Source: Temnopleurus reevesii (taxonomy: Eukaryota > Echinodermata > Echinoidea > Temnopleuroida > Temnopleuridae). Taken from it: DNA of 64,000 nt. Below the pieces are notes generated by a model. It was given only the letters and a program-made list of their open reading frames with translations. It had not been told where the DNA came from and did not search any database. Positions 4,772 through 41,178 of the stretch are shown piece by piece. The DNA is taken from contig BQKZ01001666.1 in NCBI GenBank assembly GCA_036244855.1, positions 15,046-79,045 on the forward strand. The letters are read 5' to 3'. The translations under genes were made by a program, and so were the position numbers. Each line of letters starts with the position of its first letter. Position 1 is the first letter of the stretch.

Positions 4772-6280
4772 ATATGATAAACAGCTTGATGTAGTCCATC
4801 ACAATTTTCATAAATGGTAAAAAAATATATAGAATATTTTCAAACAGCGAAACTAAGATATGTTCAGCATGAATACTGGATTATAATGATAGAATCACGC
4901 AAGCAAAGAATACATGTACATATTAGAGAGCTATCTATTTCTTAGTTGAAAAAAAAACATGAATACATCAAGCAATCAATTACAGTTCTATTTATCAAGT
5001 ATAATTTGCCATTAGAATGATGGGGTGTTTCTAAAAAGTTACCCCAAAATGTGAATAATCTATGAATCAGTTGCAAATTCAAACACACAGTTTCATTTGT
5101 ACATGATCTGTGCTTGTCATGAGACTCGCATGAAACACTGATCCTGATTGGTGTGTTATAGCAACACTTCGTAATACTTTTTCTAGAGAGAAAGCACTAA
5201 ATAACCATGGCAATTTTATATTTGGGGGCAATTCTAAAAAGAGAAATAGAAGATTGTTGAAAAGAGATTAATCAATCAAGTTTCGGAAAGTTAATGTTAA
5301 TATTCATGTTCTATCAAAGTGCTCATTACTAAAGGAAGTTTCATTTGGGTCATAATTGCCAGTCAATTTGTCATTGAAAGAAAAATGATCATAATAACCA
5401 TCTAGCATTCTTCTACAAAAATACCTAGCACAAACGTAGCACAAATTAATGAATACAAAACTAAAAAATATGTGGAAAATGTAACATATTAAACTGATAT
5501 AAAGAAACCTTGGAATGTTTAAAGAAGTTTTGTTGGGCAAAAATATTGGCAGGGGAAATTAACTAAACTGTAGCAGGGTGTTATTCAATCTTTTATATCC
5601 TTTACTTGTGTAAGATAATCTATTTCAAAGCATTGAATACAATTGTATGACTTTGTAAAAATTATAAGAGCCGTTACAAAGTTTACTACAGCAAAAGAAA
5701 ATTAATTCAAAATCTTATGCAAAGACTTAAAGATTCACTACAAATTTATACACAAAACACCCAAATAAGAATGATACATGAAGGCCCGTGAAATCTAAAC
5801 AACAAAAAAGAATCGCATTTCAAAGAAATAAAGTGCACCTTAGAAAGTGCACCTTAGATTAATTTTGGTGAGTTAATACTGTAAATTAAGCAGCATATTT
5901 ATAATACATTTGTCTACATGAAAGGTAAAACAAAACCCTTTCAGACTGATTGTTGGAACAATACAGAAAGTCAAACGCTGATATCTCAAAATCCTTTGAC
6001 ACCAAACAGCTGACCCAAATCATGCGTCTTGAGAAAAAGCATATAGTTATTGTTACCATTATACTTTCTCTCATAAGAAAATACTTGGTTCAGGTGTTGG
6101 TTATTCAAGTTTTATTTTCTGTCCTCATGCATATTCCAGAAAATTTGCATCCCTTGTAGTGTACCGAGGCTTACATAAATCTTTGGATCCAATTTTTATA
6201 GAGACGACATATGACAATAACCCTCTACATGTATTCACACATACTGTAACATACAATGTTTACCGTATCACTCCACTTCA

Positions 6281-14023: not shown

Positions 14024-14039
14024 ATGTCCCGACATGAAG
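14024..14039 (+). CDS. KCMF1: KCMF1 exon 1 (16-base coding part)
   Basis: ATGTCCCGACATGAAG followed by donor GTGAGC encodes MSRHE plus one base of the next Gly codon. This is the invariant start of KCMF1 and is too short to find without homology. Confidence 0.9.
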
Positions 14040-17000
14040 GTGAGCAGATTGCAGAAAACCGGAACATGTCAGCAATATTCAATAGACTTTACATGCAAAT
14101 GGTCTTGCAGTGCACTCATTCAAAATGAATGTGAATTAGGGGTTTGTCAAATGCTCGCAAGGCCAAGGGTGAATGTGGATGATGGTGATTTTTTTTTATG
14201 TGGCGCTGCTCAATGTTGACCAAGCCTTTAATCTATTGATTTTGAGGTCTCTGTATTTAATAATAAGCTTTAATTTGTATCTAATTTTGTGATCACAAGT
14301 GCCATTGATATTTCATTTGTAAACAGAGCAGAGCTGAAGTCAAAAATATTTTCATTCCTTTTTCTTGCGGATGAGTTCCTATTCTTAATTTTTCTTTTTC
14401 TCTAATTTATGCAGAGGGTCATTAACCTCCAAAATTGAATGAGGCATATAGTTCTGCCTAATCGTTCTATCTATCTCCACCGTTTATTTGTATCGTGAGT
14501 GAGTGCGTAGATTTTTTTGTGCGAGTCAATGCGGGTGGCTATCTGTCTCCAGCAATAAGAAAACAGGCGGCAGTGAATGGAGGGAAGGCAGATAGCACGA
14601 TAATGCCAGAGTAATTAAAACATTACTCAGCAAACCTGGAGCTGACATGCGCTGCATGCGCCATGTAAAATTTGCAAACATAGGCGGCAGAAATACAAGT
14701 AACCATGTCCATGTCACAAAACAAGTCCAAAAGTATGGTTTGGGCATCCTCCTCTGCGCCAGGTCCCTCATCTGCGCCTAATTGACAAACGCGATGTAAC
14801 GGGAACTATTACAATCACGAGATTCGTCACTAATGTGGTCTGTATATACTAACGATATAAAGGCCGATAAGTTGGTCTGTAAAACTTAAATTATATTCAT
14901 ATACAAACCAAAATGTCGCCGTTTGTGAANNNNNNNNNNNNNNNNNNNNNNNNNNNNNNNNNNNNNNNNNNNNNNNNNNNNNNNNNNNNNNNNNNNNNNN
15001 NNNNNNNNNNNNNNNNNNNNNNNNNNNNNNNNNNNNNNNNNNNNNNNNNNNNNNNNNNNNNNNNNNNNNNNNNNNNNNNNNNNNNNNNNNNNNNNNNNNN
15101 NNNNNNNNNNNNNNNNNNNNNNNNNNNNNNNNNNNNNNNNNNNNNNNNNNNNNNNNNNNNNNNNNNNNNNNNNNNNNNNNNNNNNNNNNNNNNNNNNNNN
15201 NNNNNNNNNNNNNNNNNNNNNNNNNNNNNNNNNNNNNNNNNNNNNNNNNNNNNNNNNNNNNNNNNNNNNNNNNNNNNNNNNNNNNNNNNNNNNNNNNNNN
15301 NNNNNNNNNGCCGTTCGTGGATTCGCAAACGGCGTCCAAGACGCACTTTTATTATAATGACCATTTTGAGGCCGTTCGTGGATTCGGCAAACGGCGTCAA
15401 AATGTGTCATATATGTATAAGTACATTTTGACGCCGTTAGTGGAATCGCAAACGGCGTCGAAGAAATTGCCTAAATAGTAAAACATTTTGAGGCCGTTAG
15501 TGGATTTGCAAACGGCGTCAAATTGTGTGATAAATAGACGTTCAATAAGGCCTTAAAAACGCTCGTATGTTACAGACCACCGAATCGACGAATTTCGTCA
15601 TTGTAAAAGAACGCCGATGTAACTCGCGTGCTCGGTGAAATCAAGACTTTTTCCTGAAAATCTCCAACCGCGTGTAAAGTGAATGGGATGCAGAGAAGGG
15701 ACCCAAATATTTTGAAATGCAAAAATGAAAGGGGTGTATATGTCATCTAAAATGACATTGTTCCTGGGGCCCGTAACATAAAGCTTTGCAATCGATCGTA
15801 CGATTGATATCAATCGCAAGTCTATGGAAAATCATGTGCTACAGTTTGCAATTGATTGCAAACTTGTTTTATGTTACAGTCCCCTGGTCAGATTTTGCTG
15901 AGATATTTCTCACACATAATCTTTAGGATATTTATGAACATGTCAGATTAAAATTGAATTGGATTTTCATTGTCTTCATGCTTTTTTCAAGCTGAAAGTT
16001 TTGGTGCGCAGACGTGCTTTAAATAGTATACATTTTAGGCAAAAATTATGCTTTTAATGTCTAATGTTGTTGCATTTTGGACTTCTGATGCCAATGTTTA
16101 CAATTTTTTGTGCCCACACCAATTGGCCACTTAAATCTAGTTCTGTAGATAGTTCAATGTCAGAAATTGTTTACAACCTCCTCAAATTCAATGAATGACT
16201 ATGTCTAACTTAATTATGATTAAAATTCTGCTAGGATCGAAAGCTCAAGCTCTTTTTTTACTTCATTTTACTCCACAGCTCTCCATTATTTAATAAGAAG
16301 ATTCAGCAGTTCTCTATGGGCAGCCAAAAGGGCCAATATTCAAAAGAGAGAAAATTAAATAAAAAAGTGAGAAATAAGAGTAACCAAGGGAAAAATATTT
16401 ATATAACGCAGAAATGTGAAAGAAGCGCAAAAGAAAATCTACTACAAAATTGAACCAAAAGTGTAGAAACAAAAACATAGATAAATATCTAGCTGTGTAA
16501 AACGAAATTAAAACCTACTACAAAAATGAACCAAAAGTGTGGAAACAAAAACATAGATAAATATCTAGCTGTGTAAAACGAAATTAAAACCAAGATGAAT
16601 AATCTATATCTTCTGCAGAAATAAGAACAAACACCAAAAAAGAAAAACAGTGTCAGAAAAATACAAATATATTGAAAACACAAATAAGTATTGGAATAAT
16701 ATAGAACGCTGAAATACAAGTTTAACCGGAGGAATTAAGAATTACAGAGAAATACGACAACACCAAAACATTAGAAGATGTAGGAAATTGAACAAAACGA
16801 CTGGATATAAGTTTATCATGAAAATAGAAGTGAGCGAAAAATAAAGAAGCTCGCGAAAAATAGAAGTAAGCCAAAAATAGAAGAGTAGCTATGCCGAGTG
16901 TCGGGTAGTCTGCAAGAACAGACCCTTGGGTTTCGTTGTGCACAAACACAGAGAGTGATACAGGGTATACACTGTGTGTCTCATTGTGTGTCTCGTGCTC

Positions 17001-20000
17001 TCCCCTAGACTGAGGATAGAGCAATGCTGTATGTGTGTGATGTAGTCACACAGCGCATGCCCTTTATCATGCTCTGCACACTCACATACCGAAAGTCTCG
17101 GGTTTGTGCTTTCAAACTACGTGTCGGGTGACTGCCGCCCGGCCGCCGCGCTAGCGCAGCGCAGGGCCATGCATTTTGTGCGCTCGTTTCGTTGGCCATA
17201 CACAGCCTAGCACAGTAGCAGGGATAGTCCAGTTAAGGACTGAGTGTTCTGATAGAACCCACCCGTCTGCATATTCACTTACACTGTACACACAGGGACT
17301 GCATAGAACTCAACCACAGAGTCCTTACATAACCCTCTATAAATATTTGAGGGTTATGTAAGGCCACTGTGGTTGAGTGCTGTGCAGTCCCTGTGTGTAC
17401 AGTGTAAGTGAATATGCAGAGGTGGGTTCTATCAGAACACTCAGTCCTCAACTGGACTATAGCAGGGACAGCCCTCGATCTCTGTTTCAATTTCGCAGCA
17501 AGTTTTGTGAGTTTTCTTTAATATTGGAGAGTCATATTGACGTTCGTAATTCAACAAAAGAAAAGGCGAGTAGACCTCTAGGCCTACACTTTAATGATGA
17601 TGAAGATGATGATGACGATGATGATTATGATGATGATGTCAGAAATCATTCAAGATTTCTGTGGAATCATTCCTGCTTTTTCTTTTTGATTTTTTTTTTC
17701 AATAAAATTATACCTACAAACACATGCTCGACCGCCGTACTTCGCAATGATGCTAGAAAGCACGATTATGCCAGATCGCAACACTCTCCACCGTAGTCCA
17801 GTTGAGGACTGAGTGTTCTGATAGAACCCACCTCTGCATATTCACTTACACTGTACATACAGTGACTGCACAGCACTCAACCACAGAGTCCTTACATAAC
17901 CCTCTATAAATATTAGAGGGTTATGTAAGGCCACTGTGGTTGAGTGCTGTGCTGTCCCTGTGTGTACAATGTAAGTGGATGCAGAGGTGGGTTCTATCAG
18001 AACACTCAGTCCTCAACTGGACTATCTCCACCGTAGCTCAGCTCACTTCTAGTTTTGGCCCACTTCTTTATTTTTCGCTCACTTCTATTTTTCGCAGTTA
18101 TTTATTTTCGTGATAAACTTACATCCAGTCGTTTGTTCAATTTCCTACATCTTCTAATGTTTTGGTGTTGTCGTATTTCTCTGTAATTCTTAATTCCGCT
18201 GGTTTAACTTGTATTTCTGTGTTTTATATTATTTCAATACTTATTTATGTTTTCAATATATTTGTATTTTCTGACATTGTTTTTCTTTTTTGGTGTTTGT
18301 TCTTATTTCTGCAGAAGATATAGATTAATTATTCATCTTGGTTTTAATTTCGTCTAACACAGCTAGATATTTATCTATGTTTTTGTTTCCACACTTTTGG
18401 TTCAATTTTGTAGTACATTTTCTTTTGAGCTTCTTTCACATTTCTGCGTTATATAGATATTTTTCCCTTGGTTACTTTTATTTCTCACGTTGTTATTTAA
18501 TTTTCTCTCTTTTGAATATTGGCCCTTTTGGCCGCCAATAGTTCTCTTTATTCATTTAATTATGATTAGCTAGTAGTCAATGTTGTTGTATTAAGTGATT
18601 ACAGTCTGCACATAAGGAATCTGCCATTGCTAAGTAATCTCAGAATATCTGATTTTGTAGCCTTTACCATTAGATTAAATAAAATATTAATGTAATATTC
18701 TTTATTTTCTCAAAGTTCCTTCCTTGTTCCTACATTCCTACTTCATTTTCTACTAATGATATAATTGGGATTATTCACAAAAAATACTTGAAAAAAAAAA
18801 ATGAACTTTATTATCTAACATGAACAAAACTGCTTTCATGTAGAATGTTGAAATTAGATTTGATTGAAAGTGACATTTTGTAATTTTTAAATGATCACAA
18901 CCTCTCGTTCGAAACTTTTACTTTAGTTGCTTTAATCTTCACTTTAGCTATATATTTTTTAAGTAGATATTAATTGGGAAAATGTAAACATGACAAATAT
19001 GGAGAGCTAAGAGGCAATACAAAATTGAATAACTGTAGAACACAATATCCTCACCTAAATAGAGTTATCGAGTGTAAAAAAAAATGCCCCCGAATGCTCC
19101 GTTTGCTACGAAACTACATGTATAGTGTACATATAATCCATTCAAATTTAATCGCAGATTCAACCACTATTCCTTTCCTAAACTGGCAACACTTAAATTT
19201 TGAATCTCTGTTTAGAACGTTCCAATTAAATGTTGTGATAACATACATGTATTAAATCTTCCTTTAAAAAGCATGTTAAAAAGATTTCCATGCCAATTTG
19301 CATGGAAAATAGTGATTTTATTATGAGTCATTGCCTAAAAATTCACCCGTTAATAACAGTGAAGAGATTCTCTTGAACGTTGTTTTCCCTGTTCTCTGTA
19401 TGGGTCAATAATGGGTTTTTATGTCAATCTATTTTGTACATAACTTGGCACTCTGTATGTGGCATACTGCATAAGTGCAAAGTTTTATTAGAGTAACAAT
19501 TCTTTCTATTGATGATTTTATGTACACTTTTCCATGTTCCGCCAGGTGTGAGCTGTGACTGCTGTCTGAAAAGTAATTTCCGAGGCAGACGGTACAAGTG
19601 TCTGATCTGTTACGACTATGACCTTTGTTCGACGTGCTATGAAAACGGAGCTACCACTACACGACACACAGCAGAACATCCAATGCAGTGCATACTTACT
19701 AGATCTGATTTTGGTAAGAATCTAATACTTAAAGAGTAGAGATGCCAAATGTTCCGGAATATGCACAAGGTGCATTTATGTACACATGTGTGAATGAAAG
19801 GCCCTCATCACTTATTGAATGGCTGAAAGTACGGTCATTGTTATGTTTCTCTCATGGCTGTTAAGCTGGTGCATTGTTCACATTTTAATTTTGACTTCGT
19901 GCATATTCTGTAACAGTTGGCTACTCTGTAAGGGATTGGCTATACATCGGCAGGGATGTGCCCAGGCGCGTTCATATCTTCTTGTATAATTCCAAAATAA

Positions 20001-23000
20001 AATAATTAAATATACCATGCCACTTTATATAAAGATGAAGAAATTTTTGTAGCAGCTTTTTCTAGTTTTCATCTACACACATGTACAAATTGGCATAGGC
20101 CATCAATTTGGGGCAAAGGAAATTTTGTTAGGGCAAGTGATTTGAAAACTTGGTTGCCTGACTGGGCAACTGGTGAAACAAATTCTTGTAGGACCCTGGG
20201 ATGTCGCTAGAAAGTTGTGATCAGTTGCAGTTGGTTGGCACAGACCAATCAAAATCCTCGTTTCATGTTTGTATTGAAAAAGTGCAAACTGTGCTCCAAT
20301 TAAAGTGCACATTCAATTTGAAGTGATATTCAATTCATGTGCAATCAATTGCAGATTTCAGGTAACCCCCAGAATTAAGTTTCGTAATGTTGTGCTCATA
20401 ATGATTTATTTTCTCCCCATATTCTAGATTTATATTATGGTGGTGAGGCGGTGAGTTTAGACCAAGCTCAGTCCTTTTCCTGTCCGTATTGCGGGAAGAT
20501 GGGATACACAGAAACAACCCTACAAGAGCATGTCACTTCAGAGCATTCAGACTCGAATGCAGAGGTGGTAAGTCACCTTGAGATTTGGTTTAAGTTATAA
20601 GCTGAAATTGACAAACTTGGAGAAAGAGGAGAATGTGTTATGGAAAAAACATAGTTTTAATTCCATTCTTGGTATCTTGTCATGAAATAATTCACAATGA
20701 TAACTTGACATCTGTGTTAAAAGGAAAGCCTACCAGTTCACATCGCAAATTTGACACGATGCAATTCATGGACGACATTTACAATTTGCAAGTAATGTTA
20801 ATGAGCTGAAATTAGGGAGGGGTAGGTGCAGATCGAACAAGCTTCATTTTGTGAAAATGTTTACGATTTTTTTTAGTTGGATCAGGATTACCCAGAAAAG
20901 GGTTTTTCTCTTCAGAATCAAGAACGATTTAGGCAAAATATAGTTGATGAGAAACAAAACCTTTTTTTTTCTTTTTTTTAATTTCTAAATCCTATTTTTC
21001 TTATAGAAATTGACAAATTCACCGACAAATCGGTGAAGGTTGCACCATGCATTATTCAATAAGCCTGAATTTGGTACAAAATATCGCCAATTTTAGACAT
21101 ATGCCCCACTGGTGATTTTAAAGTTCAGAGAGCTCTGATATTAATTTGATAACAAGATACCAATGGCATCATATTAACCATCCTCATATTATTTGGGCAA
21201 CATACTGTACACACAACAATAGATTTTAAGAATCCCCAATTTCCAAGTATTTCTTTTGCAAATGTAAGCAAATTTCACCCAACATGAAAAACAGACAAAG
21301 GGGGTATTGTTCAAAATCAACGGCAAAACAACTGCAACTATGCAAATTGTAACGCACATTTTAATGCGTGCACTGTATGCGCATTGAACAAGACATACAT
21401 AAAACAATGATTTTGATCAGCACGTTCCGATCAACTGCAACTTTTGAACAACACCTCCTATGATTAATTGTACATATTTGAATCAACAGTTGTGCATCTA
21501 GTATGTTGCTCAATGTTGAGATAATTTTTGAATAATGTCATTAGAGTGCATAATTCTTTTGTTTTCCATTCCATGTAGGTGTGTCCAGTTTGTGCAGCGT
21601 CGCCAGGAGGCGATCCTAATCATGTGACGGATGATTTTGCAGCTCATCTAACATTAGAACACAGATCATCGAGAGAAATTATATCCTTTACTGCTCACAA
21701 AAATCATCTGATAGTTATACATCAATTGTAGTTGGGCCAGTATACTCTAAACAAATTCTTTGATTATCCAGAGGTTGCCTTGCTGACATTTTGAAATAAT
21801 TTACTTGTTAATTTTGTTTGTTTGCTCATTATTGTTTTTTTTTCAGTATCAGAGCAGCTGTGCTACAAATTTGCTTGTACATAAGCCAATCCTATCGTTA
21901 CAGTTATTGTTGTTGCTGTTTTTTTCTCTGGGGTATAATGGCCTCCCCTTCCTCAACATTTTTTGCTGCCATGCTGCCAAAGATTTTTTTTTCTGCTTTG
22001 CGGATTTTTTTTTGCGGATTTTTTCTTTCAAATCTCATGCAACTGTTGAGAACAAATTTACCACCACTGAGTATCTAGTCTTGACATTTCGCTTTTTTGA
22101 AAGTCAGCTCATAAAACAGCCCAGTAGAATTAGAGATAAAAGTATTATCATTGTTATGATTTGCTTGTAAATAGAAATAAGAGTTTATCCTTGACTTGAC
22201 ATATCTCACGATGAAGCTGGTAATGTGAGACATTTAAGAAGAATGTTTCACCCCGGCAGAGGTATAGGACCGAGACCGCGCAGGACAAACATGCACTTTG
22301 GTGGCGGTAGCGGGCTCTCTGCAGGTCAAAGTTCAGGCTCTCCTGGAAACAGAGAAGCTATGGACCCCATAGCAGGTGAATTTCTTTTCATTATCTACTG
22401 TAAAAGTTGAAGTTTTTGCTGGGGTTTTATTTTTGCAGTTATGCGACCACCATTTCACTAAAATTTTCACTCATTATCCATAGACTTGTATACAAGAATC
22501 TTTCAAAATATGAAAAATAAAGACTTGCTAGTGTGAAATGGTCTGAATGTCAGAAGTAACAATTCATGTGCAAGGAAATTTTTTTTTTCTTTTTTACAGT
22601 ATGTGAACTTCTGTGAGTATTCCTTTATTTAGGAAGTAAAATATGAATTGTCAAGTAGCTGAAATCAATATGTTCTAATTAGAATAAAGCATGAAACCAC
22701 CAAGCATTTTTTGTCAAGATATTTATTTTTAGGTTAGAATCCAAAATTTTCAAAATAGTACATCATCATTCAATCATATTGGCAAATTTGTTGTAATTTC
22801 CAAGTAAATTGGATGAGTAATAGAAAACATGACAATGCAATGAAGACACAAGTCAACCAATAGAATTGTTTAGTACCTAATTACCTAATCGTGATATGAT
22901 TGATTTTATGATTAGCTGTATAGCTTGAAGTGGTTTAGTTTCATGTAAGTTTTGATATATAAAGTAGTAAAAAAAAAAGAAGAAAAAACCCAACTAATAA

Positions 23001-26000
23001 TAGGTTCCACATTTGATAATGTTTCAAACTCAACCATGAATTGTCATGACAGGAGACCTTCAAATTAAAGCCTAGCAAAATAGTTCATTGCTAAGTAGGC
23101 AGGTTTACTATTCATAGATACAAATTTTATTTGTACTCTGTACGCAAAGATTGGTCTTGACGACCCAAAAGCTTGTCGGTGGCTTGCTGGACGTAGCAAT
23201 AACTAATGTATGCAAACTGGATTCCAGTTAAATTTTTACTATAAATCAGTTGAAGGAGTTTCACCGAATTACATTGGTTGGCAAGAAAATTGCATTAGTC
23301 TTCTTGAATAAGATAAGATGATATATATATATATTGTCCAAAGTGATATGGGAATTCTTCTTCCTATGAAATTTTATGAACAAAAATCAAGTGGTGGTAG
23401 TCTTTGTGCAACAGCATCAGGTTCTATGGAAATGCTTGATATCGGCACTACTTTGAGATCTTGTTTTGTTTTTTATCCAACACTGACCTAACCCTAATAT
23501 TTTGTCCTTTTCACAGAACTCTTATCACAGCTATCGGGGGCAAGACGGTCGGCGGGCGGACTGGGCAGCCATTCCTCCACAGCATCTCAGCTCCATCAAC
23601 TCCAAATGATGCAGCTACAACTCGAGAGACAACAACAACAACAACAACAGCAGCAGCAGCAACAACAATCACAGAACGCCCAGGTTAGAAGTATGGTAAG
23701 TGAGGTATCTTTCTATCTTGTGCGTCTGCTTGAAATTTTTCCTGATGTGGGGTTTTAGAGGCAAGAATATTTCTCTTGGTCCGTCAACTTCGTCTTCAGG
23801 AAAGGAAGGATATTGTATCTGTACTGTTATGTGTTAAGTGTAGATTTACATCGTCAAGAATTATTGGACAGTTTTAGAAATTTTTCCAAAATTGGACCAC
23901 ATAAATATATTAGTGCTTCACTCTCAAAATTATAATTTAAGGATTTTGAAATATAATAGGATTTAATAGGATTTTTATAGAATTGAACATGTGAATGATG
24001 ATATCCTATATGTTCAGGGTCCAACATGTATGATTTATAGAATTGCCCTAGTTTGTGAATTCCATTTTTTGAATCCCTCTCTGTCATATGAAATGAACTT
24101 CTTTCACCGACGTCAGAATGCACGAAACAATAATTTTCAGTGACAAGGTGAAATTGTTGTGGTGTGCGTTTTGTGTGTGATCTTCTATTCATACATTATA
24201 TGATATCCGATTACTATTGCCAAATGAACCATTGCCAAGAAATTGAGGAAATGAGAAGAATTCCATATCCTGGATCCTGTTCATGATAGCTACTTTTAAG
24301 AATTTTGGATTGGAAATGCAGAGGTGCCAACTGTTCTGAAATACGCATGAGTTGTATTTTCATATGAATTCAAGGCTTTCTTTGCAAGTGAATGGCTGAG
24401 AGTATATTGGGTGACTTCAAGTACGGTGTTGAACGCAGGTGTTGGTGTTGCTGCAATACCAACACCAGCCTCAACACCAAACTTGAAGTCTGTCGGTGTT
24501 TGGGGTAGACCTCGCAAGATTCTGACGTATTTCCGGTCGTTTCTGTATCACTTCTGTACCCTGACCAACGGTGTTAGAGCTCGGTTTAAGGACCGTTTTG
24601 CTCTCTCAACACCAACACCAACACCAAACACCATACTTGAAGTCACCCATTGTTGTCATGTGTGATATCACCTTATTTCAGCTGTTGCATTATTCACATT
24701 TTAATCTTTACCTCATTCGCCTCATGCATATTCCGGAATGGTTGGCATTTCTGGAAATATCTGCTTGTGACATTTAGTACGGATAGAATAGGATGGAAAT
24801 TGATTTAACAAATGAAATAATCACTACATTGATGGACGAAATAAAAATTATTGTTATACCTTTGTATTTCCTGTTGTGTCATTCATCAACAAACCTGTTC
24901 TTTGAAGAATAACAGATCCTTCCTTCCTGTTTCTTGCCAAACAGTGGCCAATTGCACAAAATGGTCTTAGCTATCATCCTGAACGGTATCAAGGGTTATG
25001 TTTATAATTGGGTGGCACAAGAAGTTTAGACGTCTTAGCAAGTATAAGATAGCTAAGACCATTTCGTGCAATTGGCCCCAAGTGGATAAGAATATGACAT
25101 AAAAGTAGAGACACAGAACACAGAACAATCATAACTACGAACCATATATGCTTTTTTGTACAAGTGGTTGATAAGAGGTGCCTTTGGGAAACAGTTTTTT
25201 TTATGGACAATAGTAATTATTTTAATGAACTGATCACTAATATTTATTCATTTGCGTTCCCCCATGTCATGTGTGAAGGAAACAAATTAATAAGTGATCT
25301 GTAATGGTTGACATTTATGGTTGGCATAAATTGTTGGTAGGAATGTTTATGGCATTAATGATTATGGTCTGTAGAACATATGTTCACCAGACCAAGAACA
25401 TTTTTTTTTTAATGTGAGGAGACAATTACTGGGAGCAGAAGGGACAAAAGACTTTGACAAAGTTAGCAACTTCCATTGAAGCATTCACAATAGCTAGATG
25501 GAGACAAATTTCCTTCCCTCTTATTCTGCAGAGAAATGTCAAACAGGTGTCACCCCTGTTATTTGAATTTACAGCTGGAAGAAATTTTCTTTTGTGATCA
25601 TGAAGCTAGTGCGAAGGCTTGAAAGAAGTTATTTAATTGTTCCTTCTGCTCACAGTGAATATGATGCCAAAAGTGGAGCAGCCTAACTGAACAATTGATC
25701 TCTCAATGAGTGCCATGAATGCAGTTTGTAGGACTGGTTATTGGTTGCAAAATGAAAGCTTTATCATTTGTCATTCATGTCCAAGAGGCGAAGAAAAAAA
25801 ATGGTGATTGCTCTCAACTGACCCACCTTCTGAAAATAACCCACCGTGAATTTAAAAAAAAAATATTTTTTCTTTTTCTTTACTTCTCACTCGTATGAAA
25901 AAAAACCCAGTAAAATCATAGGAAAACATGTGATATGCAACCTAGAAAGACATTGTTGTATGTTCTTTGGTATTTCATGTCCTTGTAACTTTTCTTAGTC

Positions 26001-29000
26001 CTGTTTTTTTCACGTGAAATGTGTTCCTATCATTCAAAAGGAATAATTAAAACAAAAACTTTCGCTGGCCAGCACAGCCTATTTTTCCAAAATGCCATTT
26101 GTGGGTAGTCAAACACTATTTTTCCCAGCCCGATACTAATCCTTCTTGCTTTCATCCTCCTTCTCCCACAGGGAAGACGGCAAGTAGAAAGTTTGACAGT
26201 ACCTCCCCCTAGGAGACCGACGGGGGCGGCCGCATCGGCCAACAGCAACCCAAGCCACGGCGCCCCCTCGTACAGCGGGGTGGTGGAGGCCGGCCTGCTA
26301 GCCTCCAGCACATCACAACCAGAGTCCCAGTACCTATTATCAAGGTGAGTTTTAATGGCCATTTTGATATTTCATGGGCAAGGAAATATTTCTATCCTGT
26401 ACATTTAGGGGCGAGTTCACAATGGCGGTTTATTTTGTTACCAGGGCGGTGTTTCACCAAATCGTTCTTAAAGTTTCAAATGACTTTAACCCTCATTCTA
26501 CCCGGCCGTTTAACAAGGTGATTTTCAAACAGGTGTAACGTCAAAATCACTTACCCAGTTGTCACAAACTTGATCGCAACAGTTGTATAAGATCGAAAAG
26601 AAGAAACTTACCATCCTGCAGAGTGCAAACATCTTTTTGACAGCATGGCGCTTCAAAGCATCAAGGGGGGTGGCATCATGCCCCCGGTAGGGTTAAGTGC
26701 AAGGAAATATTTTTAAAGTGAACATTTGGGACACTATGGCCCGAATTCACAATAGTGGTTTATTTTGATACCAGTAAACTGAGGGTGGTTAAAATTTAAA
26801 TGTGCTTGATTAATTGCCAATGGGGTAGGCATTGAGTGGGCATGTGAGAGCCTTGAACAGGGATGCCAACCTGCCGTATTTCGCCGTATTTAGTACGTTT
26901 TTTTACCCAAAATACGGCCATACGTTTTTTTCCCATTTTCGTACGGTATTTTCATATTTCAGTATACACTATCGATTCTCCCCTTATTGTACTGCGCTGT
27001 GCTGCCACTGTGTGTATGCACAATACACGGTGTACTTTATCGGGGATCAACTCAAAAAGATCGATACCTTTCTCAAGCGCTCTATGTATGCTACGTGCAA
27101 CGTAATTACTTTCAAGAAGATCCCATAAGAACACGTGTTCTGTCAACTCGTGGCAGGGTTTTCCGGTACACGATANATATTGAAATAGTGTGGTGCAGCA
27201 CCACACTAAAAAAAATTGCACATTTTAGGTTATAGCTTTTCCCAAACTCGTTCATTTTTCGCACTATCTTTTGTGCAATATGTTTATGATACTATATTTC
27301 ATTTCATATAGATTTGAAGACAAAATCTGGTGATAAAAATATTTGCTTTTACCAGAACTGTACTTGGGCTTTAACTGAACAATTGATCTCTCAATGAGTG
27401 CCATGAATGCAGTTTGTAGGGCTGGTTATTGTATGCAAAGTGAAAGTCATGTCCTTTGTTAGTCATGTCCATACGTCCAAGAAAAAATTGTGTAGTTGCC
27501 CAAATTGCCCGATTTTTTTTCCTTTACTTTTCGCTCTAATTAAAAATCATGTGAAAAACATGTGACATGCAAGCCAAAAAGACATTTCTAGAAATTCTTT
27601 GGCTTTTCACTTCCTTGTAACTTTTTGTAGTCCTGTCCTTTTCTTGTAGTCCTTTTCATGTGAAATGCATTCCTAAAATTAAAAAGAATATATAAAACAA
27701 AAACTTTCGCTGACCATCACAGGCTATTTTTTCAAAATAACATTGTGGGCAATCAAATAATATTTCTCTGGGCCTAATACTAATTCTTCTCGCTTCCATC
27801 CTCTCACCACCACAGGGAAGACGGCAAGTAGAAAGTTTGACAGTACCTCCCCCTCGGAGACCGACGGGGGCGGCCGCATCGGCCAACAGCAACCCAAGCC
27901 ACGGCGCCCCCTCGTACAGCGGGGTGGTGGAGGCCGGCCTGCTAGCCTCCAGCACATCACAACCAGAGTCCCAGTACCTATTATCAAGGTGAGTTTTAAA
28001 GTTCTTCAATTTCTTTCAGTTAAAGGCTTGACCACATTTTATAATACATGATGCATGGGAAAAGAAAAATGGGTACAATAAATCTCCAATGGGATTGGCA
28101 TTTGAGTAGAGCATCCAAGGCATGGCGGTCAATGGCTATTGATTAATTAAAGCTTTGTGGTCTATAGGGGAACTGCTTTGGCCAAGCGTTTAAGACCTAA
28201 AAACTGTGATGCCAGAAAGTTTAAATTGCTCACAAACCACCTCCAAATGAGTTATGGATTAAAACGCGCATTTTTCATTTGCACGCTATCTGGACTTGTG
28301 TCAAGATGCGCATGATTCATTGCTCAATTGCAACTTATAATAATTCCCAACTTTCTAGCAACACCTCATTAGTCTTCCAATTAGAAGGTAGTGTGTTTAA
28401 CTCCTGGCCGTGGAGTTTATTGCCTCCTGCAAGAAATTCATCCACATTCATCCCAGATGAGATAAATGGGTACTTGTAGAAGTAATGATCATTTTGCTGC
28501 CAGTTGAATGACTAGTGATTGGCTAAATACAATTTTGAGAAATGGAAAAGCAATGTCACATTGTGCTGAATTGGGTCTCAAAATTCTTTAAATTGTTTTA
28601 CTGAAGTTTATGGATCCAAGAGTTCTGCTAAATATCTCAAGAAAAAATGACACAACTTCGTTTTTTTCAAATCTCTTTTTTGTTTGTGGCTTATACGATC
28701 AGATTTGACTTCTTGACATAATCACACCTCTTCTTTCTTTTCCTTTACAGGATTAATGAGCCTTCCCTTTCAGAGACGGACCTTCAAGTCTCGGAGATCG
28801 AGAACGCGGACCGGAGCTTCTTTCTCCAAGATCTCATCCTCTCCACACTCAACNGTCATCATGAACATGTGAACAGAAAGGATGCAACACGTAGGTTTAA
28901 AAAAACAACTTTGATTTTGCTCATTACGAAAATACTTTTTTTTAGGGCAAAATACTTTTTTTTTGCCTCATGGAATACTTTTTTTGGTTGGCAAAGGTTG

Positions 29001-29978
29001 GCATCCCTGCTTGAAATTTGTGTTCCAGTATTTCATCAAGGAAGAATTTAGGCCAGGTGTTTAGGACACTGTTCTTTCAAATTGGAAGGTTGTTGGTTTG
29101 AATCCCAGTAGTTTTATTAATTATATTAAAAAATTGTTTCTCATTCTGCTTCACTCGGCCCAGGTGACATGAATAGGTACTGGTAGGTATGCAGAAGTAG
29201 AAGTCGTGATAATGTAATTTTTACTTTGCTTCAATTTAATGACATTAGTGACTTTTTACATTCATTTGCTGTGATTGTGTGATTTTGGAAAGGTTGTCAA
29301 AGAGCAAGTCATTGAAAGCAGCAATTTAGTTATGGAAGAGTCTGAGAAAAGTCAGGGAATTTAGTTTTCAAATTTCTAAGTGATCCCTGCCAAGTTTCTT
29401 AATCGTGAAAACTGCCCAAAATGGCAAACGATGATACTTCTGTATAAGCTGAAATTTTTGCGTTGGTTTTATTTTCGCTAATTTCACAGTTTTGGCATCG
29501 CAAAAATTTCCACTCGATATGATGCACATTCATTTGTGTACAAATACTGTCAAGAACATGAAAATAACAACACGCCAATGTGTCAAACTGGTTTGAAGTT
29601 GTGAAAATATCTGTACACGGAAATATTGGCTTATACAGTGTAATTTGGTTCAAATTTAGTTTTGTTTTGTGGCTCATATCTGCTATGACATTTTTACATC
29701 AGACCCAATTCTTTCATTTCCTTTGCAGGATTAACGAGCCTTCCCTTTCAGAGACGGACCTTCAAGTCTCGGAGATCGAGAATGCGGACAGGAGCTTCTT
29801 TCTCCAAGATCTCATCCTCTCCACACTCAACGACTCCGATAAGGAGTCCGACACTTCCCTAGAAAACATAGAGGGCGCCCTAGCAGGTTGCAGTCCAGCG
29901 GAGGACCCAACGATAGCATCATCAACCCTCCGCAAGTTAGGATCTTTAAATTTGAAAGAGAAAGAGGGGCCGGCATAG
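14024..29978 (+). CDS. KCMF1: KCMF1, ZZ/C2H2 zinc-finger E3 ubiquitin ligase (gene span, 8 coding exons)
   Basis: E3 ubiquitin ligase; its vertebrate orthologue works with UBR4 in N-degron and lysosome-linked turnover. Coding exons: 14024-14039, 19546-19713, 20428-20567, 21579-21680, 22210-22375, 23517-23695, 26172-26344 and 29729-29978. They join in frame to 397 codons plus TAG, against 381 residues in human. The ZZ finger is at about 6-51 (CDCCLKSNFRGRRYKCLICY). A C2H2/Di19-type finger region follows at about 80-140 (SCPYCGKMGYTETTLQEH; VCPVCAASPGGDPNHV). Next come HLRRMFHPGRGIGPRPRRTN, AMDPIAELLSQLSG and a 13-residue polyglutamine (236-248), then the conserved YLLSRINEPSLSETD and ENADRSFFLQDLILSTL. 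The ATG gives MSRHEG, identical to the vertebrate N-terminus. Intron 4 is AT-AC. A second copy of exon 7 and a broken copy of exon 8 look like assembly duplicates. Confidence 0.95.
14040..14887. other. 5' part of KCMF1 intron 1
   Basis: Non-coding AT-rich sequence after the 16-base first coding exon. I see no further exon and no clear repeat up to the hairpin satellite. Confidence 0.5.
14906..15525. repeat. 61-bp hairpin satellite interrupted by an assembly gap
   Basis: Four right-hand units start with GCCGTT at 15310, 15371, 15433 and 15493 (spacing 60-62). Each contains GACGCCGTT or GAGGCCGTT and AACGGCGTC, arms of a short hairpin around a GTGGATTCGC loop. The fragment ATGTCGCCGTTTGTGAA just before the gap is the same unit, so the array probably continues through it. 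Unit count is unknown. Confidence 0.85.
14930..15309. other. Assembly gap, 380 Ns
   Basis: Unsequenced. Both edges are satellite units, which explains the assembly failure. Open reading frames crossing it are artefacts. Confidence 0.99.
15766..15885. mobile_element. GGGCCYGTAACAT-family fold-back MITE
   Basis: GGGGCCCGTAACATAAAGC to TTTATGTTACAGTCCCC, with AATCGATCG and GTCTATGG inside. In KCMF1 intron 1. Confidence 0.8.
17225..17459. mobile_element. Palindromic MITE copy 1, 9-bp target duplication
   Basis: 235 bp, almost entirely one inverted repeat, TAGTCCAGTT...AACTGGACTA, centred near 17341. TAGCAGGGA flanks it on both sides (17216-17224, 17460-17468). A 9-bp duplication and long terminal inverted repeats suggest a Mutator-type non-autonomous element. 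Nested in the larger fold-back element. Confidence 0.85.
17590..17640. repeat. ATG/GAT trinucleotide repeat
   Basis: Runs of GATGAT with interruptions between the two nested MITEs. It makes a spurious poly-Asp reading frame. Confidence 0.8.
17794..18024. mobile_element. Palindromic MITE copy 2, 9-bp target duplication
   Basis: 231 bp, same family as 17225-17459, flanked by TCTCCACCG at 17785-17793 and 18025-18033. Different target duplications show two independent insertions 334 bp apart. Confidence 0.85.
19546..19713 (+). CDS. KCMF1: KCMF1 exon 2, ZZ zinc finger
   Basis: 168 bases after a CAG acceptor, encoding GVSCDCCLKSNFRGRRYKC through HPMQCILTRSDF. Contains the zinc-binding cysteines and histidines of the ZZ domain. 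Donor GTAAGA. Confidence 0.96.
19740..19931. mobile_element. GATGCCAAC-family MITE just after KCMF1 exon 2
   Basis: AGAGATGCCAAATGTTCC to AACAGTTGGCTACTCT, the same family ends and interior as at 4592. It lies 27 bases into the intron. Confidence 0.7.
20195..20365. repeat. GTTGTTCAAAAGTTGCAA-family element, degraded
   Basis: Shares the block CAGTTGGTTGGCACAGACC, AATCAAAATC and CATTTCATG-like segments with better copies at 21300 and 62295. In KCMF1 intron 2. Confidence 0.45.
20428..20567 (+). CDS. KCMF1: KCMF1 exon 3, first C2H2 finger
   Basis: 140 bases after TAG, encoding DLYYGGEAVSLDQAQSF and CPYCGKMGYTETTLQEHV up to DSNAEV. Donor GTAAGT, phase 0. Confidence 0.96.
21300..21460. mobile_element. 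GTTGTTCAAAAGTTGCAA-family inverted-repeat element
   Basis: GGGGTATTGTTCAAAATC to CAACTTTTGAACAACACC, with AATTGTAACGCACATTTT inside. In KCMF1 intron 3. Confidence 0.7.
21579..21680 (+). CDS. KCMF1: KCMF1 exon 4, second zinc-binding segment
   Basis: 102 bases encoding VCPVCAASPGGDPNHVTDD to EHRSSREI. It ends at ATT directly before ATATCCTTTA, the U12-type donor, and not at a GT. Reading on as exon reaches a stop codon within 17 codons. Confidence 0.94.
21681..22209 (+). other. KCMF1: U12-type AT-AC intron of KCMF1
   Basis: The intron starts ATATCCTTTA, a full match to the minor-spliceosome 5' site, and ends in AC. TATCCTTGAC at 22186-22195 fits the U12 branch-point consensus (TTCCTTRAC). Its branch adenosine lies about 15 bases from the 3' site. 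Removing 529 bases joins SREI to DEAGNVRH in phase 0, matching vertebrate RDLDESSGVRH. No GT-AG choice gives this junction. Confidence 0.93.
22210..22375 (+). CDS. KCMF1: KCMF1 exon 5
   Basis: 166 bases preceded by AC, encoding DEAGNVRHLRRMFHPGRGI to GNREAMDPIA plus one base. Donor GTGAAT. Confidence 0.95.
23517..23695 (+). CDS. KCMF1: KCMF1 exon 6, glutamine-rich
   Basis: 179 bases after CAG, encoding ELLSQLSGARRSAGGLGS, QLHQLQMMQLQLER and 13 consecutive glutamines from mixed CAA/CAG codons. It ends VRSM at GTAAGT. A shorter ending at CAG before GTTAGA is possible and would drop four residues. Confidence 0.9.
24317..24755. mobile_element. GATGCCAAC-family MITE split by a nested element
   Basis: The ends match the family (GCAGAGGTGCCAACTGTTC; GGAATGGTTGGCATTTCTG). 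The middle is interrupted by a second element at about 24413-24655. Length is therefore about 440 bp against 180-190 for other copies. Confidence 0.75.
24413..24655. mobile_element. Nested TIR element, GGTGACTTCAAGTA ends
   Basis: Left GGTGACTTCAAGTACGGTG and right inverted CACCATACTTGAAGTCACC. GTTGGTGTTG and CAACACCAAC repeats lie inside each end. Exact boundaries and target duplication are ambiguous (ATT or ATTG). Confidence 0.7.
24945..25080. mobile_element. AATGGTCTTAGCTATC-family fold-back element
   Basis: GGCCAATTGCACAAAATGG and TCTTAGCTATC at the left, inverted GATAGCTAAGACCATTTCG and TGCAATTGGCC at the right. The interior contains AAGTTTAGACGTCTTAGC. A second copy is at 35307-35486. 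Confidence 0.75.
25435..25670. mobile_element. Palindromic AGCAGAAGGGACAAA-family element in KCMF1 intron 6
   Basis: Left GGAGCAGAAGGGACAAAAG, right TTCCTTCTGCTCACAGTG, with TCACAATAGCTAGATGG and TTATTCTGCAGAGAAATG shared with the copies at 39105 and 42965. Confidence 0.65.
25683..26360. repeat. Duplicated block around KCMF1 exon 7, copy A
   Basis: Starts AACTGAACAATTGATCTCTC and aligns, with small differences in the intron part, to 27371-28004. The exon itself is the same. See the finding on the N-bounded block 27177-28853. Confidence 0.8.
26172..26344 (+). CDS. KCMF1: KCMF1 exon 7
   Basis: 173 bases after ACAG, encoding GRRQVESLTVPPPRRP to SQPESQYLLS plus two bases of a split Arg codon, donor GTGAGT. 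It is GC-richer than its surroundings. An apparently identical coding copy lies at 27816-27988. Confidence 0.9.
26440..26515. repeat. Half copy of the GTGTTTCACC-family element
   Basis: GGGCGGTGTTTCACCAAATC and TTCTTAAAGTT match the left end of the copy at 3705. No right end follows. In KCMF1 intron 7. Confidence 0.6.
26864..27175. mobile_element. Left half of an element with GGGATGCCAACCTGCC end
   Basis: CAGGGATGCCAACCTGCCG followed by CGTATTT repeats and ATACGG segments. It stops at the single N at 27176 without a right end. Confidence 0.5.
27371..28004. repeat. Duplicated block around KCMF1 exon 7, copy B
   Basis: Counterpart of 25683-26360, inside a contig bounded by single Ns at 27176 and 28854. 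Intron flanks differ from copy A by substitutions and small indels, as alleles would. Confidence 0.8.
27816..27988 (+). pseudogene. KCMF1: Second copy of KCMF1 exon 7 (probable haplotype duplicate)
   Basis: Same 173 bases with at most a silent difference, and the same splice sites, inside the block 27177-28853 bounded by single Ns. The exon enters in phase 0 and leaves in phase 2, so splicing both copies in series would break the frame. Intron flanks are similar but diverged by small changes. Best read as the other allele inserted by the assembler; a mutually exclusive exon is the less likely alternative. Confidence 0.8.
28751..28853 (+). pseudogene. KCMF1: Truncated copy of KCMF1 exon 8 ending at a single N
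   Basis: Begins after TTTACAG and encodes RINEPSLSETDLQVSEIENA through ILSTLN, then stops at the N at 28854. What follows is unrelated repeat. The complete exon is at 29729-29978. Confidence 0.85.
28855..29012. mobile_element. Right half of an ATACGG/ATACTTTT-type element
   Basis: It ends AAAGGTTGGCATCCCTGC, the inverse of GCAGGGATGCCAACC, and is A/T-run rich. A left end CAGGGATGCCAACCTGCCG starts at about 26864 and runs to the N at 27176. The two may be one element split by an inserted contig. Confidence 0.5.
29729..29978 (+). CDS. KCMF1: KCMF1 exon 8 (terminal)
   Basis: 250 bases after TTGCAG, encoding INEPSLSETDLQVSEI, NADRSFFLQDLILSTLND and an acidic tail to LGSLNLKEKEGPA and TAG. The NLKE motif matches the vertebrate C-terminus. 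Confidence 0.95.
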
Positions 29979-38781: not shown

Positions 38782-39979
38782 AACTTTTGTCAAAATATAC
38801 AAATATCTGTGGAAATATTCATTAAATCTGATTCCTTTCTTGCAAAGTGAATAGAGTATCATGATTCAAATATCAAATACATGTATAAGTAGAATTATAA
38901 CACAATTCAAATATCAATCTTCATCACCATCACCGCTAAGTACAGGCCACTTTTGATAAGCCTATGTACCGTTTATGAGCACAAATAAATGTATAAATAA
39001 ATTTTCTTAATGTACAGAGTATAATTTGTTCTGAAATTGCACTTGAAATAAATGTATGTACGCACATAGCGTTGCATAATGTGTCTTTCTATTCATCTGT
39101 GATGAGCAGAAGGGACAAAGGTTTGGAAAAAGTAAAATATTTCCTTTGCGCCTTCACAAGCGCATCACAAGCAAAAGAAAGTAGATTCCCTATTTTTTTA
39201 TGACAAGGTGTGACACCCATTCAACATTTCTCTGCAATATAAGAGGGAAAGGAAATTATTTGGTACACATCTAGCTATTGTGAATGCTTGAATGGAATTT
39301 GTCTAGTTCATCCAAATCCTTTGTCCCTTTTGCTCACAGTACCATATCTAACAGATAGACATACAAATAAACGCAGACCATTGCATAATATCGTTGTAGT
39401 AACAACCGTATTAAAGCAAGTGCTAGGTAATGAGCATGCATTTCAACAGTGCATTTGGTGCTATGTTGGGGATTTGTTTTGACAATCCAGCAAACACGTG
39501 CTTTTACGACAGTAAAATGTAAAAATTATAATATCATTAAATGTAAATGTTTAATAATACACACACAATACCTTCTTATTAGGAATGTACATGCAAACAC
39601 TAAAAACATAAGTTCCATCAGTCATAATCGATGCTCTAAAAGCTGGCACCAGCCAAATTGGGCGAGCATGATTTCAAAATAATTTATGAGGATCATGCAA
39701 ATTTTGTGCAGAGCATACTCAGATAACAAAGAAACAAACAAATCTTTCTCATATTTTCTTCACTCTATATATAATGCCAAGACATGATTTGAAAAACTCC
39801 AAAACTCACTTTAATATTTTCAAAAAATTAGTTGCATTAATGCAGCTGAAGGACTTTGGGCATTTTTTTGTCCCTCTAAAAATCAATTTGATGGAATAAA
39901 GCTACATTTATAAGTATTAAATAAATGGCAGTTAAAAGTGTTCTGATAAAATTGGAAACCAATTAATTTCTATCTTTGT
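38782..39979. repeat. 1.2-kb duplicated block, copy A
   Basis: 1198 bases starting AACTTTTGTCAAAATATAC, nearly identical to 39981-41178 with a handful of differences. A single N lies at the join. Probable unmerged alleles, not a real tandem repeat. No gene lies inside. Confidence 0.85.
39105..39345. mobile_element. Palindromic AGCAGAAGGGACAAA-family element
   Basis: Left GAGCAGAAGGGACAAAGG and right inverted CCTTTGTCCCTTTTGCTC. Inside are TTTCTCTGCAATATAAG and TAGCTATTGTGAATGCTTG. The allelic copy is at about 40304-40545. Related palindromes lie at 25435-25670 and 42965-43205. Confidence 0.7.
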
Positions 39980-39980
39980 N

Positions 39981-41178
39981 AACTTTTGTCAAAATATACA
40001 AATATCTGTGGAAATATTCATTAAATCTGATTCCTTTCTTGCAAAGTGAATAGAGTATCATGATTCAAATATCAAATACATGTATAAGTAGAATTATAAC
40101 ACAATTCAAATATCAATCTTCATCACCATCACCGCTAAGTACAGGCCACTTTTGATAAGTACACATGTTGATTATGAGCACAAATAAATGTATAAATAAA
40201 TTTTCTTAATGTACAGAGTATAATTTGTTCTGAAATTGCACTTGAAATAAATGTATGTACGCACATAGCGTTGCATAATGTGTCTTTCTATTCATCTGTG
40301 ATGAGCAGAAGGGACAAAGGTTTGGAAAAAGTAAAATATTTCCTTTGCACCTTCACAAGCGCATCACAAGCAAAAGAAAGTAGATTCCCTATTTTTTTAT
40401 GACAAGGTGTAACACCCATTCAACATTTCTCTGCAATATAAGAGGGAAAGGAAATTATTTGGTACACATCTAGCTATTGTGAATGCTTGAATGGAATTTG
40501 TCTAGTTCATCCAAATCCTTTGTCCCTTTTGCTCACAGTACCATATCTAACAGATAGACATACAAATAAACGCAGACCATTGCATAATATCGTTGTAGTA
40601 ACAACCGTATTAAAGCAAGTGCTAGGTAATGAGCATGCATTTCAACAGTGCATTTGGTGCTATGTTGGGGATTTGTTTTGACAATCCAGCAAACACGTGC
40701 TTTTACGACAGTAAAATGTAAAAATTATAATATCATTAAATGTAAATGTTTAATAATACACACACAATACCTTCTTATTAGGAATGTACATGCAAACACT
40801 AAAAACATAAGTTCCATCAGTCATAATCGATGCTCTAAAAGCTGGCACCAGCCAAATTGGGCGAGCATGATTTCAAAATAATTTATGAGGATCATGCAAA
40901 TTTTGTGCAGAGCATACTCAGATAACAAAGAAACAAACAAATCTTACTCATATTTTCTTCACTCTATATATAATGCCAAGACATGATTTGAAAAACTCCA
41001 AAACTCACTTTAATATTTTCAAAAAATTAGTTGCATTAATGCAGCTGAAGGACTTTGGGCATTTTTTTGTCCCTCTAAAAATCAATTTGATGGAATAAAG
41101 CTACATTTATAAGTATTAAATAAATGGCAGTTAAAAGTGTTCTGATAAAATTGGAAACCAATTAATTTCTATCTTTGT
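39981..41178. repeat. 1.2-kb duplicated block, copy B
   Basis: Same length and content as copy A. Differences include GCGCC/GCACC near 39150/40350 and a short changed patch near 38962/40160. Confidence 0.85.

What the first reader, a model, noticed from the sequence alone, without database searches (positions are those of the whole stretch)
21681..22209. KCMF1 carries a U12-type AT-AC intron
Exon 4 ends exactly before ATATCCTTTA, and exon 5 begins right after AC. TATCCTTGAC sits about 15 bases before the 3' site. All three minor-spliceosome signals are present, and the protein joins in phase 0 at the point expected from vertebrate KCMF1. AT-AC introns are a small minority even among U12 introns. 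Standard gene finders that require GT-AG would lose the junction and either truncate the protein at the stop soon after HLIVIHQL or start a false gene at the next exon.
Basis: partly seen in the sequence, partly recalled or inferred. Interest (0 to 1): 0.8.

Follow-up and report, generated by a model that had tools for sequence, protein, structure and literature searches.

The report
Sea-urchin KCMF1 AT-AC minor intron
A gene that looks like sea-urchin KCMF1, a ubiquitin ligase, contains one rare AT-AC intron of the kind cut out by the minor spliceosome; the prediction holds, but the same intron is already on record in flies and humans, so it is a conserved, expected feature.

Summary
The window holds a complete 8-exon KCMF1 gene (397 aa, 14024-29978). 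Six introns are GT-AG. Intron 4 (21681-22209, 529 nt, phase 0) starts ATATCCTTTA, has TTATCCTTGAC with its branch A 15 nt before the end, and ends CAC. Joining 21680 to 22210 restores the conserved protein with no residue gained or lost; each of the six in-frame GT-AG joints found adds 16 residues and removes at least 7. The genome carries U11 and U12 snRNA genes. Misread gene models of other animals spell this intron in protein letters: Ile-Ser-Phe (ATATCCTTT in phase 0) at the same codon in bonobo, fish, newt, snail and limpet, and His or Tyr (CAC/TAC) before exon 5 in 24 of 25 misjoined models. So the intron is probably ancestral to bilaterians. Lin et al. 2010 already list KCMF1 among the AT-AC U12 introns of Drosophila, with a human orthologue. 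Verdict: real, ordinary, low novelty. A side finding is more interesting: in insects the donor looks tandemly duplicated, the downstream copy used and the upstream one coding (ISFL). No RNA from this species was available.

The parts
14024..14039 (+). KCMF1 exon 1, MSRHEG start (ATGTCCCGACATGAAG)
   Evidence: MSRHEG as in P0001
19546..19713 (+). KCMF1 exon 2 (most of the ZZ zinc finger)
   Evidence: Pfam ZZ residues 4-46
20428..20567 (+). KCMF1 exon 3
21579..21680 (+). KCMF1 exon 4, residues 109-142; ends just after the zf-Di19 match (76-137)
21681..22209 (+). U12-type AT-AC intron 4, phase 0, 529 nt
21681..21690 (+). U12-type 5' splice site ATATCCTTTA; CCTTT can pair with AAAGG at the 5' end of this genome's U11 RNA
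21729..21731 (+). first in-frame stop if the intron is retained (142 + 16 residues)
21930..22138 (+). decayed dispersed repeat inside the intron; the consensus of the aligned copies runs from TTAACCCT to AGGGTTAA (MITE-like, inferred; borders approximate)
22185..22195 (+). U12-type branch site TTATCCTTGAC, branch A at 22194
   Evidence: U12 RNA stretch GUAAGGA in L009 and L010
22207..22209 (+). 3' splice site CAC, AC at 22208-22209
22210..22375 (+). KCMF1 exon 5, residue 143 onward
23517..23695 (+). KCMF1 exon 6
26172..26344 (+). KCMF1 exon 7
29729..29978 (+). KCMF1 exon 8 with stop codon

Best explanation
21681-22209 is an ancestral bilaterian U12-dependent AT-AC intron of KCMF1, kept at the same codon (after residue 142, phase 0). 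By the established pathway, U11 pairs with CCTTT of the donor and U12 with TCCTTGAC around the branch A; U6atac then replaces U11 and splicing joins 21680 to 22210. If the intron is not removed, translation stops after 16 intron codons, giving a protein with the ZZ and Di19 zinc fingers but without the C-terminal part, or the RNA is destroyed. Shown here: the sequence signals, the exact protein joint, U11 and U12 genes, and the same donor reading and YAC reading in other animals' gene models. Inferred: that this animal's RNA is spliced this way, that U6atac is present, and any regulatory role of retention.
For: Exact protein continuity with KCMF1 PDB chains and with Diadema setosum (361 of 398 aligned columns identical over the whole protein). 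The six in-frame GT-AG joints found all use donor 21728, add 16 intron residues and lose at least 7 exon-5 residues. U12 genes at two places (E 7.5e-22 and 3.3e-21) and U11 genes at two places (E 5.9e-18 and 4.8e-15), over Rfam cut-offs. Among 344 retrieved relatives (120 listed of 1017, 120 of 398, and 104 new among the 120 listed of 899), 25 read ISF into the intron at the homologous codon and 29 read ISFL-ISF; 97 join directly to DE, 106 read ISFL and then D or E, 13 do otherwise, 74 have no anchor. Just before exon 5, 24 of 25 misjoined models have His or Tyr, as CAC or TAC would give. Four models (P0133, P0303, P0304, P0322) have SLT three codons before the end, as TCC-TTA-AC of a branch site would give. 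Internal control at intron 3: 18 of the 344 depart from the expected sequence there and none reads ISF; 8 read VS or VR, as GTRAG would give (204 as expected, 122 without anchor). Independent record: KCMF1 AT-AC, U12 in fly and human (PMC2831892 Table 2); listed as a U12 intron gene in a U6atac mutant fly study (PMC2952598).
Against: No transcript of this species was seen. In flies with a disrupted minor spliceosome the Kcmf1-a intron was still partly spliced, and the authors think the major spliceosome may then recognise it (PMC7644725), so dependence on the minor spliceosome may not be absolute. An unconstrained duplex energy between the branch site and this genome's U12 RNA does not single it out: 848 of 63,518 window 13-mers score as well or better, and other spots in the intron score better. 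One misjoined model (P0103) has Gln before DE. Table 2 gives intron number 3 of 6, this one is 4 of 7; identity of position rests on protein readings, not on aligned genomic DNA. U4atac, U6atac and CENATAC searches did not complete. A second in-frame AC at 22200 would add ISH, but lies only 6 nt from the branch A.
Confidence: 0.97

Rival explanations
1. A U2-type (major spliceosome) AT-AC intron, as known for some sodium-channel genes.
For: Such introns exist (PMC2831892); in minor-spliceosome-disrupted flies the Kcmf1-a intron is still partly spliced (PMC7644725).
Against: The known ones have G at +5; here +5 is C within ATATCCTTT, and a near-consensus U12 branch site sits 15 nt from the end.
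Confidence: 0.01
2. The true joint is GT-AG nearby and the AT-AC pairing is chance.
For: A GT lies at 21728, overlapping the frame's first stop.
Against: All six GT-AG joints found insert 16 residues and delete at least 7; relatives show ISF and H/Y readings at both ends.
Confidence: 0.01
3. The acceptor is AC at 22200, or both ACs are used, adding Ile-Ser-His.
For: In frame, no stop.
Against: Only 6 nt from the branch A; no added residues in the eleven relatives aligned.
Confidence: 0.02
4. A non-functional gene copy or assembly artefact.
For: The window holds several near-duplicate stretches beside N bases, including parts of exons 7 and 8.
Against: An uninterrupted 397-aa protein, 361 of 398 columns identical to Diadema; of 40 scored matches to exon 4-intron-exon 5 (80 candidates in the first look), the 39 beside the gene itself cover only the repeat in the intron.
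Confidence: 0.01

Closest known systems
KCMF1 / CG11984 AT-AC U12-type intron (Lin et al. 2010, PMC2831892 Table 2)
   Same: Same gene, same AT-AC subtype, U12-type in fly and human
   Different: New species (an echinoderm close to Diadema); intron 4 of 7 here against number 3 of 6 in the table; carries a dispersed repeat
U11 snRNP-binding splicing enhancer, USSE (PMC8329584, passages)
   Same: Tandem U12-type 5' splice-site motifs, compared with the insect ISFL-ISF arrangement
   Different: USSE copies are non-coding and not used as donors; the window has a single donor, and in insects the second copy appears to be the real donor

Membership tests
U12-type (minor) intron, AT-AC subtype | 5' splice site ATATCCTT(T) (consensus recalled) | tested here: met
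   ATATCCTTTA at 21681
U12-type (minor) intron, AT-AC subtype | Branch site TTCCTTRAC close to the 3' end (consensus and usual spacing recalled) | tested here: met
   TTATCCTTGAC, branch A 15 nt before the intron end; one departure from the consensus
U12-type (minor) intron, AT-AC subtype | 3' splice site YAC, no distinct pyrimidine tract before it (tract: PMC3584512) | tested here: met
   CTTGACATATCTCAC
U12-type (minor) intron, AT-AC subtype | Minor-spliceosome RNAs in the same genome | tested here: met
   U12 and U11, two loci each; U4atac and U6atac searches not answered
U12-type (minor) intron, AT-AC subtype | Splicing depends on U11/U12/U6atac | not testable with these tools
   needs RNA and knock-down; in flies the orthologue is partly spliced without a normal minor spliceosome (PMC7644725)
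Orthologue of the known KCMF1 minor intron | Same gene, same codon and phase | tested here: met
   ISF and H/Y readings at codon 142/143 in other animals' models; Table 2 of PMC2831892. Genomic DNA of other animals was not seen
U2-type AT-AC intron | G at donor position +5 | tested here: not met
   C at +5; criterion from PMC2831892
USSE tandem element | Two tandem U12-type 5' splice-site motifs | tested here: not met
   Single donor in the window: intron 4 reads ISFTAHK, not ISFLISF

The most novel reading that the evidence does not exclude
The KCMF1 minor intron is a conserved switch whose donor was duplicated in tandem (12 nt, coding ISFL) before the sampled insect orders split; the downstream copy became the donor and the upstream copy became coding sequence that still resembles a U11 binding site. 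The pair would act like a USSE set on a used donor, raising minor-intron splicing, while retention gives a zinc-finger-only KCMF1 that competes with the full protein.
Probability: 0.15. Interest if true: 0.55.

Novelty: new member of a known kind. Interest (0 to 1): 0.25.

Why it matters
It adds an echinoderm case to a very old minor intron and shows a cheap way to trace such introns: misread gene models spell the U12 donor (ISF) and acceptor (H/Y) in protein letters. It also shows that database models of KCMF1 are sometimes garbled at this place, which matters for anyone using them.

Tried and rejected
Tried and of little use: unconstrained duplex energy of the branch site with the genome's own U12 RNA (not discriminating); counting the donor 10-mer genome-wide (no excess over the reversed control); Rfam scan of the window at gathering thresholds (no match). 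The second ATATCCTTTACT at 5595 was considered as another minor intron and rejected. GT-AG, second-AC and U2-type AT-AC readings were rejected as told above.

Counts: two regular-expression tallies of the same 344 proteins differ slightly. One search gives 99 direct, 28 ISF, 28 ISFL-ISF, 100 ISFL-DE, 22 other, 67 no anchor; one search gives 97, 25, 29, 106, 13, 74, and I quote. A bare motif count gives 29 ISFL-ISF, 112 ISFL-D/E and 171 of any R[DE]x-ISF kind. The patterns allowed I, L, M or V in the first place and S or T in the second in some classes. Two of the 106 ISFL-DE rows (P0303, P0304) are in fact misjoined models (ISFL-DSLTSMH-DE). In the acceptor tally (26 rows) P0114 was dropped as a false anchor; 128 proteins had no acceptor anchor. 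Some of the 18 intron-3 rows (for instance P0179, P0181) look like other joints, not read-through.

Papers: PMC2831892 passages and section 8; passages only of PMC2952598, PMC7644725, PMC10639083, PMC3584512, PMC8280824, PMC8329584. Paper searches: KCMF1 with minor introns; echinoderms; tandem U12 donors and USSE; misannotated minor introns. Their listings showed no report of the insect tandem donor, which is a weak negative.

Full report
What is there. The window holds a complete KCMF1 gene on the + strand: eight exons from 14024 to 29978 that encode 397 residues starting MSRHEGVSCD and ending LNLKEKEGPA. Pfam finds ZZ (residues 4-46) and zf-Di19 (76-137); a TFIIA match there is below its cut-off. 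The best protein found is KCMF1-like of the sea urchin Diadema setosum (361 of 398 aligned columns identical); brittle star, starfish and feather star proteins are also among the 120 listed. The animal is probably a sea urchin; its species was not established. Six of the seven introns are GT-AG. Intron 4, 21681-22209, is ATATCCTTTA ... TTATCCTTGACTTGACATATCTCAC, phase 0.

Is the joint right? KCMF1 chains in the PDB (species not printed; human by recall) align residues 109-141 to the first 33 of the 34 residues of exon 4 and 143-199 to exon 5, so 21680/22210 falls between residues 142 and 143 with nothing gained or lost. Twelve aligned sequences (the window and eleven database proteins that I chose out of 120 listed) run through this place without a gap. 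One of them (P0002, 393 aa, longest contig 1598 bases) probably comes from spliced RNA, because the contig is little longer than the coding frame; a retrocopy is not excluded. I listed every stop-free in-frame joint of GT-AG, GC-AG or AT-AC type with donors from 21640 to the first stop and acceptors from the last upstream stop (22192) to 22289: 39 joints, 33 AT-AC and 6 GT-AG. The six GT-AG joints all use donor 21728, add 16 residues and lose at least 7. Only 21681/22209 leaves the conserved protein as it is.

Chance. [AG]TATCCTT occurs 6 times and TCCTT[AG]A[CT] 8 times on the two strands of the window. That both lie where homology puts the ends of the intron has a chance of about 3e-8, or 2e-7 with 7 donor positions allowed (my arithmetic). 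The donor word alone is common.

The machinery. The genome has U12 RNA genes at two places and U11 RNA genes at two places, all over the Rfam cut-off. Both U12 copies contain GAGUAAGGA, which can pair with UCCUU-G-[A]-C of the branch site with the A bulged and one G-U pair. U11 copy L019 starts AAAAAGGG, able to pair with CCUUU of the donor. An unconstrained duplex energy did not single the branch site out (848 of 63,518 13-mers as good or better). U4atac, U6atac and CENATAC, which promotes splicing of AT-AN introns in human cells (PMC8280824, passages), could not be searched because the tool did not complete.

Reading other animals' introns in protein letters. No animal genome other than this one was open to me, but gene models that fail at an AT-AC intron spell it out. 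In phase 0 ATATCCTTT reads Ile-Ser-Phe. A search with the intron-retaining form of the protein brought short models that do this at the same codon: bonobo isoform X2 ending EHRAPRDLISF, the newt Pleurodeles, several fish, the snail Nucella, the limpet Lottia. Over all 344 proteins retrieved (120 listed of 1017, 120 of 398, 104 new among the 120 listed of 899), 25 read ISF into the intron, 97 join directly to exon 5, 106 read ISFL and then D or E (two of these, P0303 and P0304, are misjoined), 29 read ISFL-ISF, 13 do something else and 74 had no anchor. On the other side, 25 models enter exon 5 from a false upstream place (P0114 dropped as a false anchor; 128 proteins without anchor); 24 have His or Tyr just before Asp-Glu, as CAC or TAC would give, and one (P0103) has Gln. 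Lottia's model seems to read the whole intron through as 32 codons, ISFFILIFFSFHFTNMLFKLSILILSLTLFH. In it and in P0303, P0304 and P0322, Ser-Leu-Thr stands three codons before the end, as TCC-TTA-AC of a branch site would give. As a control, 18 of the 344 depart from the expected sequence at intron 3; none reads ISF and eight read VS or VR, as a GTRAG donor would. These readings are inferences from protein letters, not DNA.

Known or new. Lin et al. 2010 (PMC2831892, section 8 read) list CG11984/KCMF1 in Table 2 as an AT-AC intron, U12 in fly and human; the table has nine AT-AC rows of nineteen, while the text says eight. CG11984/KCMF1 is listed as a U12 intron gene in a U6atac mutant study, with 4 of 9 probes up in third instar (PMC2952598, passage). 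In flies with disrupted U12 or U6atac, the Kcmf1-a intron is named among classical U12 introns that were still partly spliced (PMC7644725, passage), so the major spliceosome may handle it in part. This intron is therefore a new species record of a known, ancient one. AT-AC makes up about a quarter of human U12 introns.

A by-product worth following. In insects the reading is not RDL|ISF but RDL-ISFL|ISF in intron-reading forms and RDL-ISFL|DE in joined forms. Some joined forms lie on contigs of about 1.4 kb that look like cDNA (P0241, P0246, P0309). Named Lepidoptera, beetles, true bugs, lice, stick insects (intron-reading form only) and the mosquito Anopheles show it; the sandfly Phlebotomus reads IAFL-ISF; Bradysia and the amphipod Hyalella could not be read. 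The listed tick, scorpion, nemertean and annelid proteins lack ISFL, and so do a shrimp (VSF) and a crab model. The simplest reading is a 12-nt tandem duplication of the U12 donor, with the downstream copy now used and the upstream one turned into coding sequence. Tandem U12 donors are known as USSE elements in SNRNP48 and RNPC3, where they are not used as donors (PMC8329584, passages). Proteins are clustered at 90% identity in the database, so isoforms using the upstream donor could be hidden. My paper searches showed no report of it, but they cover open papers only.

Mechanism, shown and inferred. Shown: signals, protein joint, U11 and U12 genes. Supported by protein readings: conservation of place, phase and both intron ends in other animals. 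Inferred: splicing in this animal; that retention makes a 158-residue protein ending ISFTAHKNHLIVIHQL or leads to decay; any regulatory use.

Noticed in passing
21930-22138: A decayed dispersed repeat lies in the minor intron, about 50 nt before the branch site; 39 other scored matches in the genome, and the consensus of seven aligned copies runs from TTAACCCT to AGGGTTAA, like a TTAA-type MITE.
   Followed up: partly
Insect KCMF1 proteins, e.g. P0127, P0138, P0243, P0255 (not in the window): ISFL-ISF in intron-reading models and ISFL-DE in joined ones suggest a tandem-duplicated U12 donor in insects, with the upstream copy made coding.
   Followed up: partly
38782-41178, 52071-54757, 55494-56119, 28678-29831: Alike stretches (88-99%) lie beside single N bases (39980, 53417, 55855, 28854), probably unmerged allelic contig ends; one affects KCMF1 exon 8.
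   Followed up: partly
25912-26355 and 27543-27999: KCMF1 exon 7 and its flanks occur twice at 85% identity; the second copy lies between the N bases at 27176 and 28854. Allele or true duplication is not settled.
   Followed up: no
16314-18541: Large inverted repeats (90-95% identical arms), with a palindromic element at 17224-17460 and again at 17794-18025; looks like nested mobile elements in KCMF1 intron 1.
   Followed up: no
P0144 (Halocaridina rubra): This shrimp model reads VSF, not ISF, after RDL, while His precedes DE: perhaps a GT donor with an AC acceptor, or a model error.
   Followed up: no
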